From a virus: a stretch of 24,840 nucleotides of DNA. This document shows, in pieces, positions 16,070 to 24,840 of the stretch. The stretch's first letter is position 1; each line of letters opens with the position of its first letter. The notes below the pieces were generated by a model that searched no databases, was not told the DNA's origin, and was given only the letters and a program-made list of their open reading frames with translations. Made by a program: the position numbers and the translations under genes. The stretch lies in the IMG/VR virus record IMGVR_UViG_3300025869_000093, positions 1 to 24,840 of that record. One strand, written 5' to 3'.

Positions 16070-16291
16070 ATGAAAGACACAATCAAAATGATTATGGAAG
16101 GCGTAAATGGTATTAAAGACCTATTGCTTCACATAGTCGGCTTAGGTGTTCTCGTACAGTTAATATTTGTAGGGGGATTCTTAGGTATGGATATTGTCGG
16201 TAATTTGATTAGTTTGGTAAATACTTTCGCTAACGCGGGATTTGCCGGATTTATATCACTAATTGTGATACTCGGATTACTCAATAAATAA
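16070..16291 (+). CDS. Small two-helix membrane protein, the only plus-strand gene
   Basis: 73 residues. After a short amphipathic start (MKDTIKMIMEGVNGIKDLL) there are two hydrophobic, Gly-rich segments, at about 20-42 (LLHIVGLGVLVQLIFVGGFLG) and 55-72 (FANAGFAGFISLIVILGLL), joined by a short VGNLISLVNT stretch. This is a hairpin membrane protein. The gene has its own leader, a strong Shine-Dalgarno site and a terminator right after it, so it is an independent, probably highly expressed unit. Small proteins of this type occur in marine T4-like phages; I believe I recall similar 'GIKDLLLHIVGLGVL' sequences but cannot confirm this. Size and topology would fit a holin, or an inner-membrane or virion component. 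Function not proven. Confidence 0.8.
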   Translation: MKDTIKMIMEGVNGIKDLLLHIVGLGVLVQLIFVGGFLGMDIVGNLISLVNTFANAGFAGFISLIVILGLLNK

Positions 16292-19425: not shown

Positions 19426-21424
19426 TTTGAATCATCTCACAAAATTTCTTAGTGTTTAGATAAGCATCCATTTCTTCAGAAAGTATATTCGTTGGTTGTT
19501 CTACATCTTCTTGGAAGTGTGTAAAGAATTCTCCGTCAAGATATAAATGATTCTTTTCAACATTATCTGAACCCTTGTAGTTATTATCAAGAGCCGGGCC
19601 CATAAAAGTATTTTCATCTGTGTATAGACCACCATTTGCTTCTGATAAGTAGTGTGATAATTGTAATCCACTATCTTGACCCGTTGACTCTAAATTGATT
19701 TCTACAATTTCCCAACCATTTCGTCTTCGTCTGTCAAACATCTTGAACTTCATTGGCATTCCATACAACTTAGCTAAATCTCTCAATTGACGAGTTTTTA
19801 ATTTTTTAAGTTTATCAACTGACACAATACCTTGCTGTTGAGCTTTTTTAAATCTAATAAAAGATTCAACCTGTGGTTGAAAGAAATTTTCTTCTCTTTT
19901 CTTCCAACTTTGTCCAGATTGTATTTGCTGTTCATACTTGTTAGTTTCTGTTTCTATAAAGTCTATAATATGCTCTATGAATTCTGTCATAATAGCATTA
20001 AATGTATTTTCTCTATCACGAGATAAACCGAGTTCCTCACATATATGAGCGCCATATCTCACATAAAGTAAAGCGGTATCCATACTTGAAGCTTTTACTT
20101 TTAGGAATCCGCTAAATGTTCTGTCGTTATTAAGTTCTTGCCATTCTTTATAATGTGAATCAACCGCATCTGATAACCTTAACCAAAGATTAATACCATT
20201 TGAAGAAATAAGTTCAGCGACTGAAATAAATCTTTTTGACCACTTAGTTAATACCTCCGTGGTAATTCTATCTTTATAAATTGAATCCACATATGTAGAG
20301 TCATTTTCTGGACCACTTAAAAACTTATAAAGTCCAGTTGCAACTTTTTGTTTAAGACTCACTACAAATAACATCAATGGTTCAGTTTGATAACCAGAGA
20401 AATTTTTTGAACCTCTACCACTTAAGAAGTTATGGTGTTCTCCTCGTAAAACATAATTATCCGCACATACTTTGTCAACTTTCAATTGACTATAACCCCA
20501 ACTATCTTTTTTAATCAAAGTATCTGTTAATTCAGTTAAAGAGTGGTTGTGGGGTTCCCAATTATTATCTAACTGATTGATAGCTTTAATTTCTGCTTTA
20601 TGTGTGTCTATTGTTTCTAACCTTATTTCAATGGTTTTTTCAGCTGTCCAAAGGTTGTTGAATATATGACTTGGTAAAATTTCTTCAAGTGTAAATTCAT
20701 CTTTTGTCAATAATAACTTCTGCATAGTAGTATTAGTAAATACTTTTAATGACTTTGATGTATCTTTTCTTTCTTCATCAATTTTTATTAGTCTTTGTCT
20801 AACCTTTTTCCAAAACTTAACATCTTTTGATAGATTGTCATTGACAAACATTTTCATTACGGTCATAAAGTGTCCTCTATCTTTTGCTAATAAACAATCG
20901 TGCATAATAATATCTGATTCACTATTGTTATGTGGATTAGAAATTAACGATACGGGTAAGAAATTAAATCCAGAATCTCCCCATAACGCTCTTATAAGAT
21001 AAGCTACTTTTTTAACCAACATAGATTCTTCGGAAAGAAATGGTTCTCTATTAAATGGTGAGTTAATGATTGCCCACCTTTCAACTTCTGTAAAAGCATT
21101 GGTTAATCCTTGCTCTCGTGTAAGATAATACATATATCCTAATGGCATTCTAACTACCTCTTCAAAAGCTCCTATGTCACCATTATTAACTTTGTTAATT
21201 CTTTCTTTTACATTAAGTTTTGCAACTCCCTTTTCCAATCTATTTTTATACATTAAATAATCTTTTTCTACTTTAATAATAATATTATTTGACTGATTTT
21301 TCTCTGGCACCGGAACAAATTCATTATTAGTAGTCATATATAGTTCCTTACTTTCCGCTGACGAGACTTCTTTAATCTCTTTTTTATCGTTTTTCTTTTT
21401 TATTATTTTTTCTACTTGACTCAT
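19418..21424 (-). CDS. Large orphan protein with SAP/Rho-N-like basic segment
   Basis: 668 residues, not recognised. The N-terminal 60 residues are Lys/Glu-rich and likely disordered. Residues 80-500 are mainly helical; notable parts are RMPLGYMYYLTREQGL (92-107), YLIRALWGDSGFNFLPVSLI (142-161), LLAKDRGHFMTVMKMFVND (178-196) and LRGEHHNFLSGRGSKNFSG (326-344). At 536-570 the segment VDKLKKLKTRQLRDLAKLYG followed by MPMKFKMFDRRRRNG resembles SAP or Rho-N nucleic-acid-binding helices and is strongly basic. The C-terminal 90 residues are acidic. The gene starts in TAATG overlap with the DruA-like gene and runs into the glycosyltransferase, so the three are made together. No catalytic motif known to me is visible; it may be a new enzyme or a large DNA-binding subunit. 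Confidence 0.7.
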   Translation of the reverse strand: MSQVEKIIKKKNDKKEIKEVSSAESKELYMTTNNEFVPVPEKNQSNNIIIKVEKDYLMYKNRLEKGVAKLNVKERINKVNNGDIGAFEEVVRMPLGYMYYLTREQGLTNAFTEVERWAIINSPFNREPFLSEESMLVKKVAYLIRALWGDSGFNFLPVSLISNPHNNSESDIIMHDCLLAKDRGHFMTVMKMFVNDNLSKDVKFWKKVRQRLIKIDEERKDTSKSLKVFTNTTMQKLLLTKDEFTLEEILPSHIFNNLWTAEKTIEIRLETIDTHKAEIKAINQLDNNWEPHNHSLTELTDTLIKKDSWGYSQLKVDKVCADNYVLRGEHHNFLSGRGSKNFSGYQTEPLMLFVVSLKQKVATGLYKFLSGPENDSTYVDSIYKDRITTEVLTKWSKRFISVAELISSNGINLWLRLSDAVDSHYKEWQELNNDRTFSGFLKVKASSMDTALLYVRYGAHICEELGLSRDRENTFNAIMTEFIEHIIDFIETETNKYEQQIQSGQSWKKREENFFQPQVESFIRFKKAQQQGIVSVDKLKKLKTRQLRDLAKLYGMPMKFKMFDRRRRNGWEIVEINLESTGQDSGLQLSHYLSEANGGLYTDENTFMGPALDNNYKGSDNVEKNHLYLDGEFFTHFQEDVEQPTNILSEEMDAYLNTKKFCEMIQNG

Positions 21425-22614
21425 TATCTACCTATATCTCCTAAGTATTTTTCTTTTGCTTCTTCCCACGAGATGTTAATCATTCCGGAATAGAATAATT
21501 TCTCTGGTTTTATTTTGTTTTGTTCTAATAGTTTTTCATATCGTTTGATTGCTTTACGCTTCCACCAACTATCTATATACTCTATGTCTCTGTCAAACAT
21601 ATTTCTGATTTCCAATTGGTCTTCATTGATTTCACTTCTTAGAAATTCTTTTCCATTTTGATATATGTTAGCAAAATAACAACCTCGTTTAAATCCGTGT
21701 TCATACTTTGCTCTCTTGATATCTAACTCTTTATATATCATTTGAATAATCTTTTGTTTAATACCTGTAACGGGTTGTCCGTTTGCTCTTACACCAACTT
21801 TACTATCATATTCTTCTCGTTTATTATCTTTAATCCATTGGTGCCAAGTATCATAAAATGTATCGTCTGGTTTTAAACTAATCTTACCTTTGGTTTCTCC
21901 AAGAGTTTTCCATTGTGGTATTCCATTATACATTGAGTGAATACCATACAAAGCTGTTGTGGATATACCGACTAATGTTTGTCCATATAGTTTCTTCCAA
22001 GTATCACGAACTACATTTGATGTAACCATTTGTGCTACTAACTTACCACCCAACATATTGAAACCTAATGGTTGAACACAACATATCGTAGTTCCGATTG
22101 CAGTATGATTTAACTTACCCTCTTTAAATTTATTTTCTTTTGTCCAACCGATTAGTTCATCTCTAACTCCTAATGAAGTTACATCACTACCTAAACAAAT
22201 CATACCTAATACTTTACCAGATACTTTATCTTTAACATAAAACTTTACATTACGACCTGGATTTGCTGTGAACTCCATTGAGTGAATTAGTCTTCTTGTG
22301 ATAATCCAATCCTCGTTTGCTTTCGCATTACCTTGTTCTACTGGTTCGACGATTGGTTCTATTGAATTGATTTCTTGAATTGTTAATTCTTTATTATAGA
22401 TGTCTGTTGGTTGCCAGATAGTCTTTTCTAATCTGTCAATCGTATCTGCTCTATCCATAAAGAATTGTGGGTCTTTATTGAACTCTTCCCACTTCTTCCA
22501 TAATACTGATTCTTCTACTGACATCTCTTTTAGAAAGTCCATATTGTCTATGAACTTTTGTTTCTCTGCTTCGTAGTTAAACTCAGCTTCACCGAAAAAG
22601 TTTTCAAAACTCAT
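21424..22614 (-). CDS. DUF4338 / DruA-family protein
   Basis: 396 residues. Residues 100-225 follow the DUF4338 pattern of Druantia protein A: NVKFYVKDKVSGKVLGMICL (122-141), then VRDELIGWT (150-158), a 'LNHTAIGTT' strand (168-176), LGGKLVAQMV (188-197), DTWKKLYGQTLVGISTTALYG (204-224). Charged and Trp-rich helices make up the N- and C-terminal parts (QWKTLGETKGKISL; SWWKRKAIKRYEKLL). DruA belongs to a bacterial anti-phage system of unknown mechanism, and its fold has been suggested to be related to acyltransferases only by analogy; I cannot check that. Here it is in a phage operon, first of the large genes, one base downstream of the 50-residue peptide and coupled to the 668-residue gene. 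It may modify DNA or interfere with host defence. Family call is my own pattern match. Confidence 0.6.
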   Translation of the reverse strand: MSFENFFGEAEFNYEAEKQKFIDNMDFLKEMSVEESVLWKKWEEFNKDPQFFMDRADTIDRLEKTIWQPTDIYNKELTIQEINSIEPIVEPVEQGNAKANEDWIITRRLIHSMEFTANPGRNVKFYVKDKVSGKVLGMICLGSDVTSLGVRDELIGWTKENKFKEGKLNHTAIGTTICCVQPLGFNMLGGKLVAQMVTSNVVRDTWKKLYGQTLVGISTTALYGIHSMYNGIPQWKTLGETKGKISLKPDDTFYDTWHQWIKDNKREEYDSKVGVRANGQPVTGIKQKIIQMIYKELDIKRAKYEHGFKRGCYFANIYQNGKEFLRSEINEDQLEIRNMFDRDIEYIDSWWKRKAIKRYEKLLEQNKIKPEKLFYSGMINISWEEAKEKYLGDIGR

Positions 22615-22832: not shown

Positions 22833-23366
22833 TTAATTTGATATAAATTTTATATCCTCATTTAAATTTGCTTTCTTAATTGTAGCACTTGTAAACTTAT
22901 ATGGTTTAGTTCCTGGTGATTCCAAGATATCAATACGATTCACAAACCTTGCATTCATTGTATCTTTAACTTGATAGACTCCGTCTTTACCATCTGTTCC
23001 ATTTAAAACAATAAAGTCACCATAGTCTAACCAACCACCCCAACGCTTTAATAGATTTCTACTCACCGCAACATACTTGTATTCTGATGCTTTGTGTATT
23101 CTGATTTTAGTTCCGTCTGCTAATATGTTTGGTGTTCTATCGGTTTGTCCTCTGACTGGATGGTACATTGTAACAACAACATCAAGTCCGTCTAATCTAT
23201 AACCATTTTCTAATTCATCAATTCTTAATTGTAACCTAACTCTATCGTCTTCCAACGAATCAATCGTTGCCATATAATATTCACGATACCCTTTGAATAG
23301 TTTATCCCAAACCAATCCATTGAATAATGTAAAAATTGTTACAAATATAATAAAATATTTTTTCAT
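22833..23366 (-). CDS. Membrane-anchored 3D-domain (double-psi barrel) protein
   Basis: 177 residues from the ATG at 23366. A GTG at 23375 is in frame, but AGGAG ends there and has proper 8-base spacing to the ATG, so the ATG is the better start. Residues 3-20 (KYFIIFVTIFTLFNGLVW) are a membrane anchor or signal, followed by a charged coiled coil to about 54. From 59 on there is a 3D domain: VVVTMYHPVRGQTDRTPN, ILADGTKIRIH, WLDYGDFIVLNG, then VKDTMNARFVNRIDIL, with the Asp residues typical of the family. 3D/MltA-like barrels occur in peptidoglycan-acting proteins, so a role in lysis or the cell envelope is possible. It follows the RimK-like gene by 26 bases. Domain call quite sure, role inferred. 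Confidence 0.82.
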   Translation of the reverse strand: MKKYFIIFVTIFTLFNGLVWDKLFKGYREYYMATIDSLEDDRVRLQLRIDELENGYRLDGLDVVVTMYHPVRGQTDRTPNILADGTKIRIHKASEYKYVAVSRNLLKRWGGWLDYGDFIVLNGTDGKDGVYQVKDTMNARFVNRIDILESPGTKPYKFTSATIKKANLNEDIKFISN

Positions 23367-23392
23367 AGTTTCCACTCCTTTTATAGTAATAA

Positions 23393-24286
23393 CTATTTAG
23401 TTCCTATCTTTTTCTGTATATAATCTACCATTTGTTCAGCGACATTTATCTTGGTATATTTTTCCATACCTTGAAAACCTGGCGCAGAATTAACTTCACA
23501 TATTACATACTTACCATTATCAAATAACAAGTCTACACCCGCTATATCTAAATCTAATAATCTTGCACACTCACCACCAATCCACTCAATGTCTTCATCA
23601 ATCTGATAAGGAATTGCTTCCCCACCTCGTGTGATGTTTGCTCTAAAATCTCCGTCAATGGATTGTCTCATCATACAACCAACTACTTTTCCATTGATAA
23701 CCAATACTCTTAAATCTCTACCCAATGAATCTTCAACACATTCTTGAATAATAATGTTGTATCTGGCATTAGATAGTTCTGCCATTTTCATCAGTTGTCT
23801 AAATTGTTTTCTGTCCTCAACCATAAAGACTCCACTACCATATGAACCACTTAAAGTTTTTACAATCATTGGATACTTGATATTGTCCTCTACTAACTTT
23901 ACATTAATTGGATGCTTAACCAACATAGTTTTAGGAACTGGTAAAGATGACTGACCTAATATCTGTTGTGAATATAATTTATCTTTAACATTATCAATAG
24001 CATCACTTCCGTTAATCATCACAACACCCAATCTTTCTAAGTGTCTAATGATTGCTTTGATAAAGTAAGTCGTTCCACTACCTGTTCTCGGTAATACAAA
24101 GTCTGGTAATTTTCTTGGCACTCCGTCAACTATAATAGATTTCCTATCATCTCTATCAACGAATATATCTACATCTTGTGGATTAACTACACGAATCTTA
24201 ATGTCTCGTTTTTCAAACTCATCAACAAGTCTTTGGACTTCAAGATTTTCTCCTAATGATTTTTTATGTATTATCCAGCCGTTCAT
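23393..24286 (-). CDS. RimK-type ATP-grasp ligase
   Basis: 297 residues, same size as bacterial RimK (300). ATP-grasp signs: YPMIVKTLSGSYGSGVFMVE at 138-157 with Lys143 and the Gly-rich loop SGSYGSG, Glu182 (IIIQECVED), GRDLRVLVINGKVVGCM at 189-205, RANITRGGEAIPY (215-227), and metal ligands Asp252, Glu264 and Asn266 in AGVDLLFDNG-KYVICEVNSAPGF. The N-terminal LPRTGSG matches the RimK family. RimK adds glutamate to the C-terminus of ribosomal protein S6; relatives join amino acids to other acceptors. A phage copy could modify the host ribosome or a phage protein or base. It overlaps the UV-endonuclease gene by ATGA. Family sure, substrate unknown. Confidence 0.92.
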   Translation of the reverse strand: MNGWIIHKKSLGENLEVQRLVDEFEKRDIKIRVVNPQDVDIFVDRDDRKSIIVDGVPRKLPDFVLPRTGSGTTYFIKAIIRHLERLGVVMINGSDAIDNVKDKLYSQQILGQSSLPVPKTMLVKHPINVKLVEDNIKYPMIVKTLSGSYGSGVFMVEDRKQFRQLMKMAELSNARYNIIIQECVEDSLGRDLRVLVINGKVVGCMMRQSIDGDFRANITRGGEAIPYQIDEDIEWIGGECARLLDLDIAGVDLLFDNGKYVICEVNSAPGFQGMEKYTKINVAEQMVDYIQKKIGTK

Positions 24287-24840
24287 TTTATAAATCCTTC
24301 AATTGCTAATTCTTTGTGTTTTGCCTCTACCATAATATCTACATCATTACCATATGTATTTGGTAATTCTTTAATCAAGTCTGAATGTGCTTGTGGTCTA
24401 ATTGTTTCATCTAATTGGTGTTCTGCTTTTGATTCTGAATAATGAACTACTGGTGTGATATCACCCCAAGTAGATAATGCCATTTCCAATGCTTCTTGTT
24501 CTGTTTGTCCACCGGTATTGAATTTGTAATGATGATAATCAAACACGATTGGTATTCCGATTCGTTTGTGAATACCCTCGTATAAATCTTTTACTGAATA
24601 CATTGATGCCTTGTCGTCGTTCTCGACGGTAAGTCTTGTCTGAACTGACTCTGGTAGTCGTTCAAAGTTTTTACAAAATCTATCCATAGCACTTTCTTTA
24701 TCTCCATACACACCATTACAATGTATGTTGAGTTTGTTGTATGGTGTTCTTGATAAACCCATAAAGTCAAATATGTCTGCGTGGATAGTTAAATCTGTGA
24801 TTGTGTTCTGAACTACATTTTCATTTGGTGATACCAATAC
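24283..24840 (-). CDS. uvsE: UV-damage endonuclease (UvdE/UvsE), N-terminus beyond window edge
   Basis: The frame is open to the right edge, with about 185 C-terminal residues in view; the TTG near 24837 is an internal codon. The conserved residues are clear: LNIHCNGVYGDKESAMDRF, RLTVENDD with its metal-binding Glu, IVFDYHHYKFN, VHYSESK, RPQAHSDLI and the closing DVDIMVEAKHKELA. UvdE is a TIM-barrel enzyme that nicks DNA 5' to pyrimidine dimers and (6-4) products, starting repair without glycosylase action. T4 itself uses the unrelated DenV for this. A repair enzyme fits a phage exposed to sunlight. It is the most upstream visible gene of an operon with the ATP-grasp ligase and 3D protein. 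Very confident about the family. Confidence 0.93.
   Translation of the reverse strand, partial: VLVSPNENVVQNTITDLTIHADIFDFMGLSRTPYNKLNIHCNGVYGDKESAMDRFCKNFERLPESVQTRLTVENDDKASMYSVKDLYEGIHKRIGIPIVFDYHHYKFNTGGQTEQEALEMALSTWGDITPVVHYSESKAEHQLDETIRPQAHSDLIKELPNTYGNDVDIMVEAKHKELAIEGFIK

What the first reader, a model, noticed from the sequence alone, without database searches (positions are those of the whole stretch)
23393..24286. Phage-encoded RimK-type ligase
All ATP-grasp ligands seem intact. RimK adds Glu to ribosomal protein S6, so a phage copy could retune host translation; otherwise it may modify a phage protein or base in the neighbouring pathway.
Basis: partly seen in the sequence, partly recalled or inferred. 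Interest (0 to 1): 0.5.

Follow-up and report, generated by a model that had tools for sequence, protein, structure and literature searches.

The report
Phage RimK-family ligase, substrate unknown
This phage carries an intact-looking copy of an enzyme that joins amino acids to acid ends of other molecules; phage copies of this kind have been noticed since 2008, but this branch differs from the known ribosome-modifying version where that enzyme holds its target, so its target may not be the ribosome.

Summary
The ORF at 23393-24286 (-), 297 aa, is real and is a complete RimK-family ATP-grasp ligase: Pfam Rimk_N plus RimK, TIGR00768 above cut-off, AF2 model pLDDT 90.9 with best matches Pseudomonas/E. 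coli RimK (Z 33.6-35). Catalytic residues are intact, and it is under purifying selection. 59 loci in viral contigs encode relatives, in several gene contexts. Phage rimK was predicted in 2008 and is annotated in cyanophages, so the kind is known.

Not supported is the step "RimK, therefore S6". It scores 155 bits against the 331-bit cut-off for S6-RimK. A tree places it in another group, with cyanophages, some picocyanobacteria and a Marinimicrobia bin. Ser14, which contacts the polyglutamate chain in Pseudomonas RimK, is Glu in 57 of 57 viral copies (43 distinct) and 4 of 4 cyanophages, but Ser in 10 of 10 S6-RimKs. S6 ends in two acidic residues in 1 of 22 genomes carrying the clade, against 12 of 30 S6-RimK carriers and 0 of 19 non-carriers (a weak test). 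Most likely it ligates Glu or another amino acid to a carboxylate acceptor other than the acidic tail of S6. The acceptor is unidentified.

The parts
23393..24286 (-). rimK-family ATP-grasp amino-acid ligase, 297 aa (Rimk_N 15-97, RimK ATP-grasp 101-290)
24283..24840 (-). uvdE/uvsE UV-damage endonuclease, C-terminal 185 aa (runs off the window); its end overlaps the rimK start by 4 bases (translational coupling inferred)
22833..23375 (-). next gene downstream on the same strand, 180 aa, hydrophobic N-terminus by eye, phrog_21574 (unknown function); stands just behind rimK in the uvdE-type loci

Best explanation
It is an active RimK-family ATP-grasp ligase that T4-type phages carry as an auxiliary gene. 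It uses ATP to make an acyl phosphate on a carboxylate and joins the amino group of an amino acid, most probably L-glutamate, to it. The acceptor is probably not the acidic S6 tail that E. coli and Pseudomonas RimK extend, but another protein end or small molecule found in many hosts. Shown: family, predicted fold, intact catalytic residues, selection, separate group in the tree, changed acceptor-site residue, changing neighbours. Inferred: activity, glutamate as donor and the direction of chemistry (from the family). Unknown: the acceptor.
For: Family and fold. Intact catalytic residues. Purifying selection. Separate group of 47 rows (SH-aLRT 92, below the program's star), ten S6-RimKs grouped apart (97*). 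Equivalog test: 1 of 15 members of A1 matches NF007764 at 1e-80, with E 3e-202, which must be the E. coli RimK put in as control; the window does not. Ser14, which contacts the bound Glu chain in P. aeruginosa RimK (PMC10092738, section 3.3 read), is Glu in 57/57 viral copies (43 distinct), 4/4 cyanophages and 17/18 cellular clade members (1 Asp), Ser in 10/10 S6-RimKs, and Thr in the phage RimK-RimB hybrids YerA41 and Mosig, which keep the poly-Glu protease domain. S6 tails; Fisher p 0.004 between S6-RimK carriers and this clade's carriers, kinship ignored. No S6 gene found in 20 of 20 phage records, 13 of them possibly fragments. The gene stands behind nine different sequence clusters in 59 loci.
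Against: The nearest solved structures and sequences are still S6-RimKs (Z 33.6-35 against 26.5-31.3 for LysX/ArgX; 134-142 bits against 85). 18 of 30 genomes with a true S6-RimK also lack two acidic residues at the S6 end, and 18 of the 22 clade genomes are closely related picocyanobacteria, so that test is weak. One residue does not fix specificity: Glu at this position also occurs in one distant family member (L236) and Asp in Melnitz, while other distant members have Ser or Thr. The S7/R8 loop aligns differently in two alignments. The tree is a quick one, with long-branch warnings. Donor identity was not tested.
Confidence: 0.5

Rival explanations
1. It does glutamylate host ribosomal protein S6 (or makes poly-alpha-glutamate) and retunes translation during infection, as Monier and colleagues proposed in 2008 for other marine phage RimKs.
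For: Closest solved relatives are S6-RimKs, one of them solved with RpsF (5zk6, Z 34.8). PHROG name 'ribosomal protein S6 glutaminyl transferase'. RimK-like genes stand next to a translational regulator or repressor gene (regA by my reading) in Melnitz and Mosig. 2008 proposal in PMC2530865 (passages read).
Against: Fails the S6-RimK cut-off, separate group in the tree, Ser14 to Glu, no doubly acidic S6 end in 21 of 22 genomes carrying the clade.
Confidence: 0.25
2. A named special case, not counted in the best explanation: it acts on a phage component or on a small molecule of phage nucleotide metabolism (for example a folate or modified-nucleotide acceptor, or a virion protein).
For: thyX lies directly upstream in 17 of 59 loci, purine genes stand near it in S-RIM12 and S-CAM8, a phosphoribosyltransferase-like ORF behind it in L072 (my reading of the sequence, no family search). 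The YerA41 RimK-RimB hybrid is annotated as a structural protein.
Against: In the window's own context the neighbours are uvdE, an unknown protein and DruA-like; S-RIM32 places it near head and recombination genes and S-RIM8 among hypothetical genes before the terminase. Cellular relatives show no shared neighbour pathway. YerA41 is in another group of the tree.
Confidence: 0.2
3. It is a decaying or non-functional passenger gene.
For: Sporadic in cells: full-length strong matches in 5, plus one partial, of 121 genomes of one picocyanobacterial family; reported as a variable gene in a Synechococcus phage lineage (PMC6722890, passage read).
Against: Catalytic residues invariant over 57 viral copies, dN/dS median 0.13, overlap with the upstream gene in 53 of 59 loci.
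Confidence: 0.03

Closest known systems
S6-RimK of E. coli and Pseudomonas (NF007764; 4iwx, 5zct, 5zk6, 7qyr, 7qys)
   Same: Whole-length fold (Z 33.6-35.0, 289-291 aligned), ATP and metal residues, R64, R189, N262
   Different: 32% identity to E. coli RimK, below the equivalog cut-off, Ser14 to Glu, His215 to Thr/Ser, usual Ser68 to Gly, different group in the tree
Cyanophage 'ribosomal protein S6 glutaminyl transferase' (S-RIM12, S-RIM8, S-CAM8, S-RIM32)
   Same: 44-46% identity over 97-100%, same group in the tree and the same Glu at position 14
   Different: A separate phage lineage within that group, joined with picocyanobacteria; other neighbours
Marine phage RimK predicted by Monier et al. 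2008 (PMC2530865), and RimK-like proteins of Melnitz, Mosig and YerA41
   Same: RimK-family ATP-grasp proteins of phages
   Different: 28-30% identity for Melnitz, Mosig and YerA41; Mosig and YerA41 carry a C-terminal RimB (PF05618) domain and Thr at position 14, Melnitz has Asp there; separate group in the tree. The 2008 sequences themselves were not compared
LysX/ArgX (3vpd, 3vpb, 5k2m, 1uc8)
   Same: Fold (Z 26.5-31.3); ATP-grasp ligation to the terminal Glu of a carrier protein (function recalled, partner LysW named in PDB titles)
   Different: 20-24% identity, below the LysX cut-off (152.5 of 275.6 bits)

Membership tests
RimK-family alpha-L-glutamate ligase (TIGR00768 / PF08443+PF18030) | Score above the curated cut-offs | tested here: met
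   TIGR00768 227.2 of 143.4; PF08443 172.8 of 21; PF18030 50.9 of 26.4
RimK-family alpha-L-glutamate ligase (TIGR00768 / PF08443+PF18030) | Intact ATP-grasp catalytic residues and fold | tested here: met
RimK-family alpha-L-glutamate ligase (TIGR00768 / PF08443+PF18030) | ATP-dependent ligation of L-glutamate | not testable with these tools
   needs an enzyme assay
S6-RimK (NF007764, 30S ribosomal protein S6--L-glutamate ligase) | Equivalog cut-off 331 bits | tested here: not met
   155.1 bits; of 15 members of A1 one matches at 1e-80, with E 3e-202, taken to be the E. coli control
S6-RimK (NF007764, 30S ribosomal protein S6--L-glutamate ligase) | Groups with S6-RimK equivalogs in a tree | tested here: not met
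   10 S6-RimKs together (97*), window in another group of 47 rows (92); quick tree
S6-RimK (NF007764, 30S ribosomal protein S6--L-glutamate ligase) | Glu-chain contacts S7, R8, S14, R64, S68, R189, N262 (PMC10092738) | tested here: not met
   R64, R189, N262 kept; S14 is Glu in both alignments; S68 position is Gly (2 of 10 S6-RimKs also lack Ser there); S7/R8 loop not safely alignable
S6-RimK (NF007764, 30S ribosomal protein S6--L-glutamate ligase) | S6 of the organism ends in acidic residues | tested here: inconclusive
   1 of 22 carriers of this clade, 12 of 30 S6-RimK carriers, 0 of 19 without; the phage's own host is unknown
S6-RimK (NF007764, 30S ribosomal protein S6--L-glutamate ligase) | Adds Glu to S6 | not testable with these tools
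   needs assay or mass spectrometry
LysX / MptN / CofF | Equivalog cut-offs | tested here: not met
   152.5 of 275.6, 153.4 of 350, 110.2 of 300 bits
RimBK hybrid | RimB (PF05618) domain in the protein or genome | tested here: not met
   PF05618 not among the window protein's matches at E 0.001; no match in 13 of 13 viral records of the clade and 4 of 4 cyanophages, present in YerA41 and Mosig; the viral records may be fragments

The most novel reading that the evidence does not exclude
Phages of several lineages recruited a ligase of new acceptor specificity, with a carboxylate (Glu16) in the acceptor channel, that modifies a still unknown acceptor shared by very different hosts, perhaps a cofactor or a phage/host protein end rather than S6. 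T4-type phages may have taken up RimK-family genes as many as three times (this lineage, the cyanophage lineage, and the Mosig/Melnitz lineage).
Probability: 0.35. Interest if true: 0.6.

Novelty: new member of a known kind. Interest (0 to 1): 0.35.

Why it matters
Phage rimK carries the label 'ribosomal protein S6 glutaminyl transferase' in database records and PHROGs on homology. If this clade has another acceptor, that label is wrong for cyanophages and many T4-type phages, and repeated uptake of the gene points to an unrecognised step in phage infection that can be tested with one enzyme assay.

Tried and rejected
Link to uvdE or to the gene downstream: rejected as a general pathway, because thyX or other genes stand upstream elsewhere. 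Phage-encoded S6 as substrate: no match in 20 of 20 records. A separate RimB: no match in the 13 viral records and 4 cyanophages of the clade. Operon in cells: no neighbour shared by more than 9 of 31 loci. T4 late promoter TATAAATA: 2 matches in the window against 4.3 expected, 3 against 2.45 in L020, no signal. tRNAs in the window: none. Host: nearest isolates by three other proteins of the window are Flavobacterium phage immuto and Microcystis phage Mel-JY01, neither among the 30 records with a rimK match; host left open. Folate reading: the search for RimK, folate and polyglutamate returned two papers; two passages of one were read and do not address phages.

Rows dropped or incomplete: the tree left out L126 (truncated by my extraction) and L099 (short), lacked L205 and L211 (not extracted), used 25 of the 57 full-length viral copies, and Mosig and YerA41 were cut to their RimK part. 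The alignment also left out the distant family members and the three RimB/regA-type phages; five of those members and all three phages are. The S6 test used 30 of 76 genomes over the S6-RimK cut-off (29 of the 30 best-scoring, one skipped because its rimK frame has a stop, plus the lowest over the cut-off), 19 of the 122 genomes without a match at 1e-60 (the listed ones other than G027), and 22 of 25 genomes of the clade (no S6 in two, a partial one in the third). One of the 22 (L122) belongs to the Pelagibacter bin whose rimK contig looks like phage. In one search my script began at a wrong position for L195 and L200, whose matches lie near a contig end; redone: L195 had been read in a wrong frame, L200 was right, and the count stayed 0 of 19. 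The genome scan searched with motifs from the phage alignment, so it favours close relatives. Gene overlaps rest on the first start codon of each frame, so overlaps other than 4 bases may reflect the start chosen.

Full report
Observation. The ORF 23393-24286 on the minus strand starts with ATG, ends with a stop, and encodes 297 aa. It matches Pfam RimK (7.9e-51), Rimk_N (2e-13) and, more weakly, other ATP-grasp models, TIGR00768 above its cut-off, and PHROG 2599 'ribosomal protein S6 glutaminyl transferase'. The record is an IMG/VR virus contig of 24840 bases classed as linear, so probably a fragment, with T4-type baseplate wedge genes on the same strand. The AF2 model from a 40-sequence alignment has pLDDT 90.9 and pTM 0.89. 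Its best solved matches are the RimKs of Pseudomonas aeruginosa, P. syringae and E. coli (Z 35.0-33.6, rmsd 1.7-2.0, 289-291 residues), then LysX/ArgX (Z 31.3-26.5), then glutathione synthetase (25.4).

Reality and selection. 59 loci in viral contigs encode relatives, 71-96% identical in their best segments. dN/dS against the twelve nearest is 0.06-0.19, and the median over 1031 pairs with dS 0.1-1.2 is 0.13. In 59 loci with an upstream gene in view (the window and 58 relatives), the gene overlaps that gene in 53, by exactly 4 bases in 37. The upstream gene belongs to nine sequence clusters; the commonest are uvdE (17) and thyX (17). The gene thus changes place while keeping tight coupling, which fits a stand-alone enzyme and speaks against one fixed neighbouring pathway. 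In the thyX context, NagB-like and PIG-L genes and glycosyltransferase-looking ORFs sometimes stand close by.

Is it S6-RimK? Three lines say that it is not an orthologue. First, 155 bits against the 331-bit cut-off of NF007764, no better than MptN (153) or LysX (152); of 15 members of alignment A1, one matches at 1e-80, with E 3e-202, which must be the E. coli control. Second, a quick maximum-likelihood tree of 68 rows puts 25 viral copies, 4 cyanophages and 18 cellular rows (picocyanobacteria, a Marinimicrobia bin and an uncultured bin with the same neighbours, a planctomycete, an alphaproteobacterium, and L072, which is probably phage) in one group of 47 (SH-aLRT 92, below the program's star), while ten S6-RimKs group apart (97*), and Mosig, Melnitz and YerA41 form a third set (99*) on long branches that the program warns about. 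Cyanophage copies join picocyanobacteria (90) and the window's lineage does not (its own 26 rows 99*), so phages may have taken up such genes more than once; transfer from phage to cells is not excluded. Third, in P. aeruginosa RimK the bound Glu chain touches S7, R8, S14, R64, S68, R189 and N262 (PMC10092738; section 3.3 read, other passages). R64, R189 and N262 are kept here, but S14 is Glu in 57 of 57 viral copies (43 distinct proteins), 4 of 4 cyanophages and 17 of 18 cellular clade members (the other is Asp), against Ser in 10 of 10 S6-RimKs. A second alignment gives Glu in all nine clade rows included. YerA41 and Mosig, whose RimK part is fused to the poly-Glu protease RimB, have Thr there; Melnitz has Asp, and of five more distant family members one has Glu and four have Ser or Thr, so an acidic residue is not unique to this clade. 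The S7/R8 loop differs between the two alignments and is not used as evidence. Against this, sequence and fold still lie nearest to S6-RimK among characterised enzymes.

S6 tails. In genomes with the clade's gene, S6 ends in two acidic residues in 1 of 22; in 30 genomes with S6-RimK, 12; in 19 without, 0 (two rows checked again). Fisher's test gives 0.004 for the clade against S6-RimK carriers and 0.001 for S6-RimK carriers against non-carriers, but it ignores kinship, and 18 of the 22 clade genomes are picocyanobacteria. An acidic end goes with S6-RimK, yet 18 of 30 carriers lack it, so the test only weakens the S6 reading. In 121 genomes of the family of a Cyanobium carrier, a full-length match at 47-56% identity to a cyanophage copy was found in 5 (four of them already known carriers), a partial one at 57% in 1, and a 34-35% match in a long frame in 4; 111 have no match at 1e-30. 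A phage copy would then often bring a new activity, if the hosts of rimK-bearing cyanophages are typical of that family.

Literature. Monier et al. 2008 (PMC2530865; passages read) predicted rimK in marine T4-like phage contigs, one flanked by regA and several with DUF785 (PF05618), found them distant from bacterial RimK, and proposed a role like that of the T7 kinase that modifies S6 and other translation proteins. A 2019 study of a Synechococcus phage lineage lists a RimK-family gene among variable genes (PMC6722890; passage read). The RimB paper reports bacterial RimBK hybrids, and saw no glutamylation of Pseudomonas RpsF by the one it tested (PMC11957791; passages read). I saw no paper testing a phage RimK in the listings; several listings were cut at 10-27 titles, and the library lacks most subscription journals.

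Mechanism. By family, ATP phosphorylates an acceptor carboxylate and the amino group of an amino acid attacks it (recalled for ATP-grasp ligases). The residues for this are present. What is unsettled is the acceptor. I put 0.5 on an acceptor other than the S6 acidic tail without naming it, 0.25 on S6 or poly-Glu, and 0.2 on a phage or nucleotide-pathway acceptor in particular.

Verdict. Real, intact and conserved; a new member of a known kind (phage RimK-family genes). The S6 role is an inherited label that the evidence here does not support for this clade.

Noticed in passing
window 21424-22614 (-): DruA-like protein (PF14236, 1.3e-22; phrog_19197 of unknown function), named after a protein of the Druantia defence system; its cluster is in 22 of 60 loci.
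   Followed up: no
window 16070-16291 (+): 73-aa hydrophobic-looking ORF on the opposite strand to the surrounding genes; its cluster is in 11 loci, on the opposite strand in the rows shown.
   Followed up: no
L065 3845-5266; L067 3683-5068: Phage RimK-like proteins with a C-terminal RimB (PF05618) domain (YerA41, Mosig). The YerA41 protein is annotated as a structural protein.
   Followed up: partly
L040 4211-6004: NagB-like and PIG-L deacetylase genes and a glycosyltransferase-looking ORF (no Pfam match) between thyX and rimK, possibly a sugar pathway.
   Followed up: no
L031 5849-6004: Small acidic ORF (51 aa) between uvdE and rimK in 7 loci, overlapping rimK by 4 bases.
   Followed up: no
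L072: Contig filed under a Pelagibacter bin that looks like phage (HNH-like and phosphoribosyltransferase-like ORFs by eye) and is the 61% relative.
   Followed up: no
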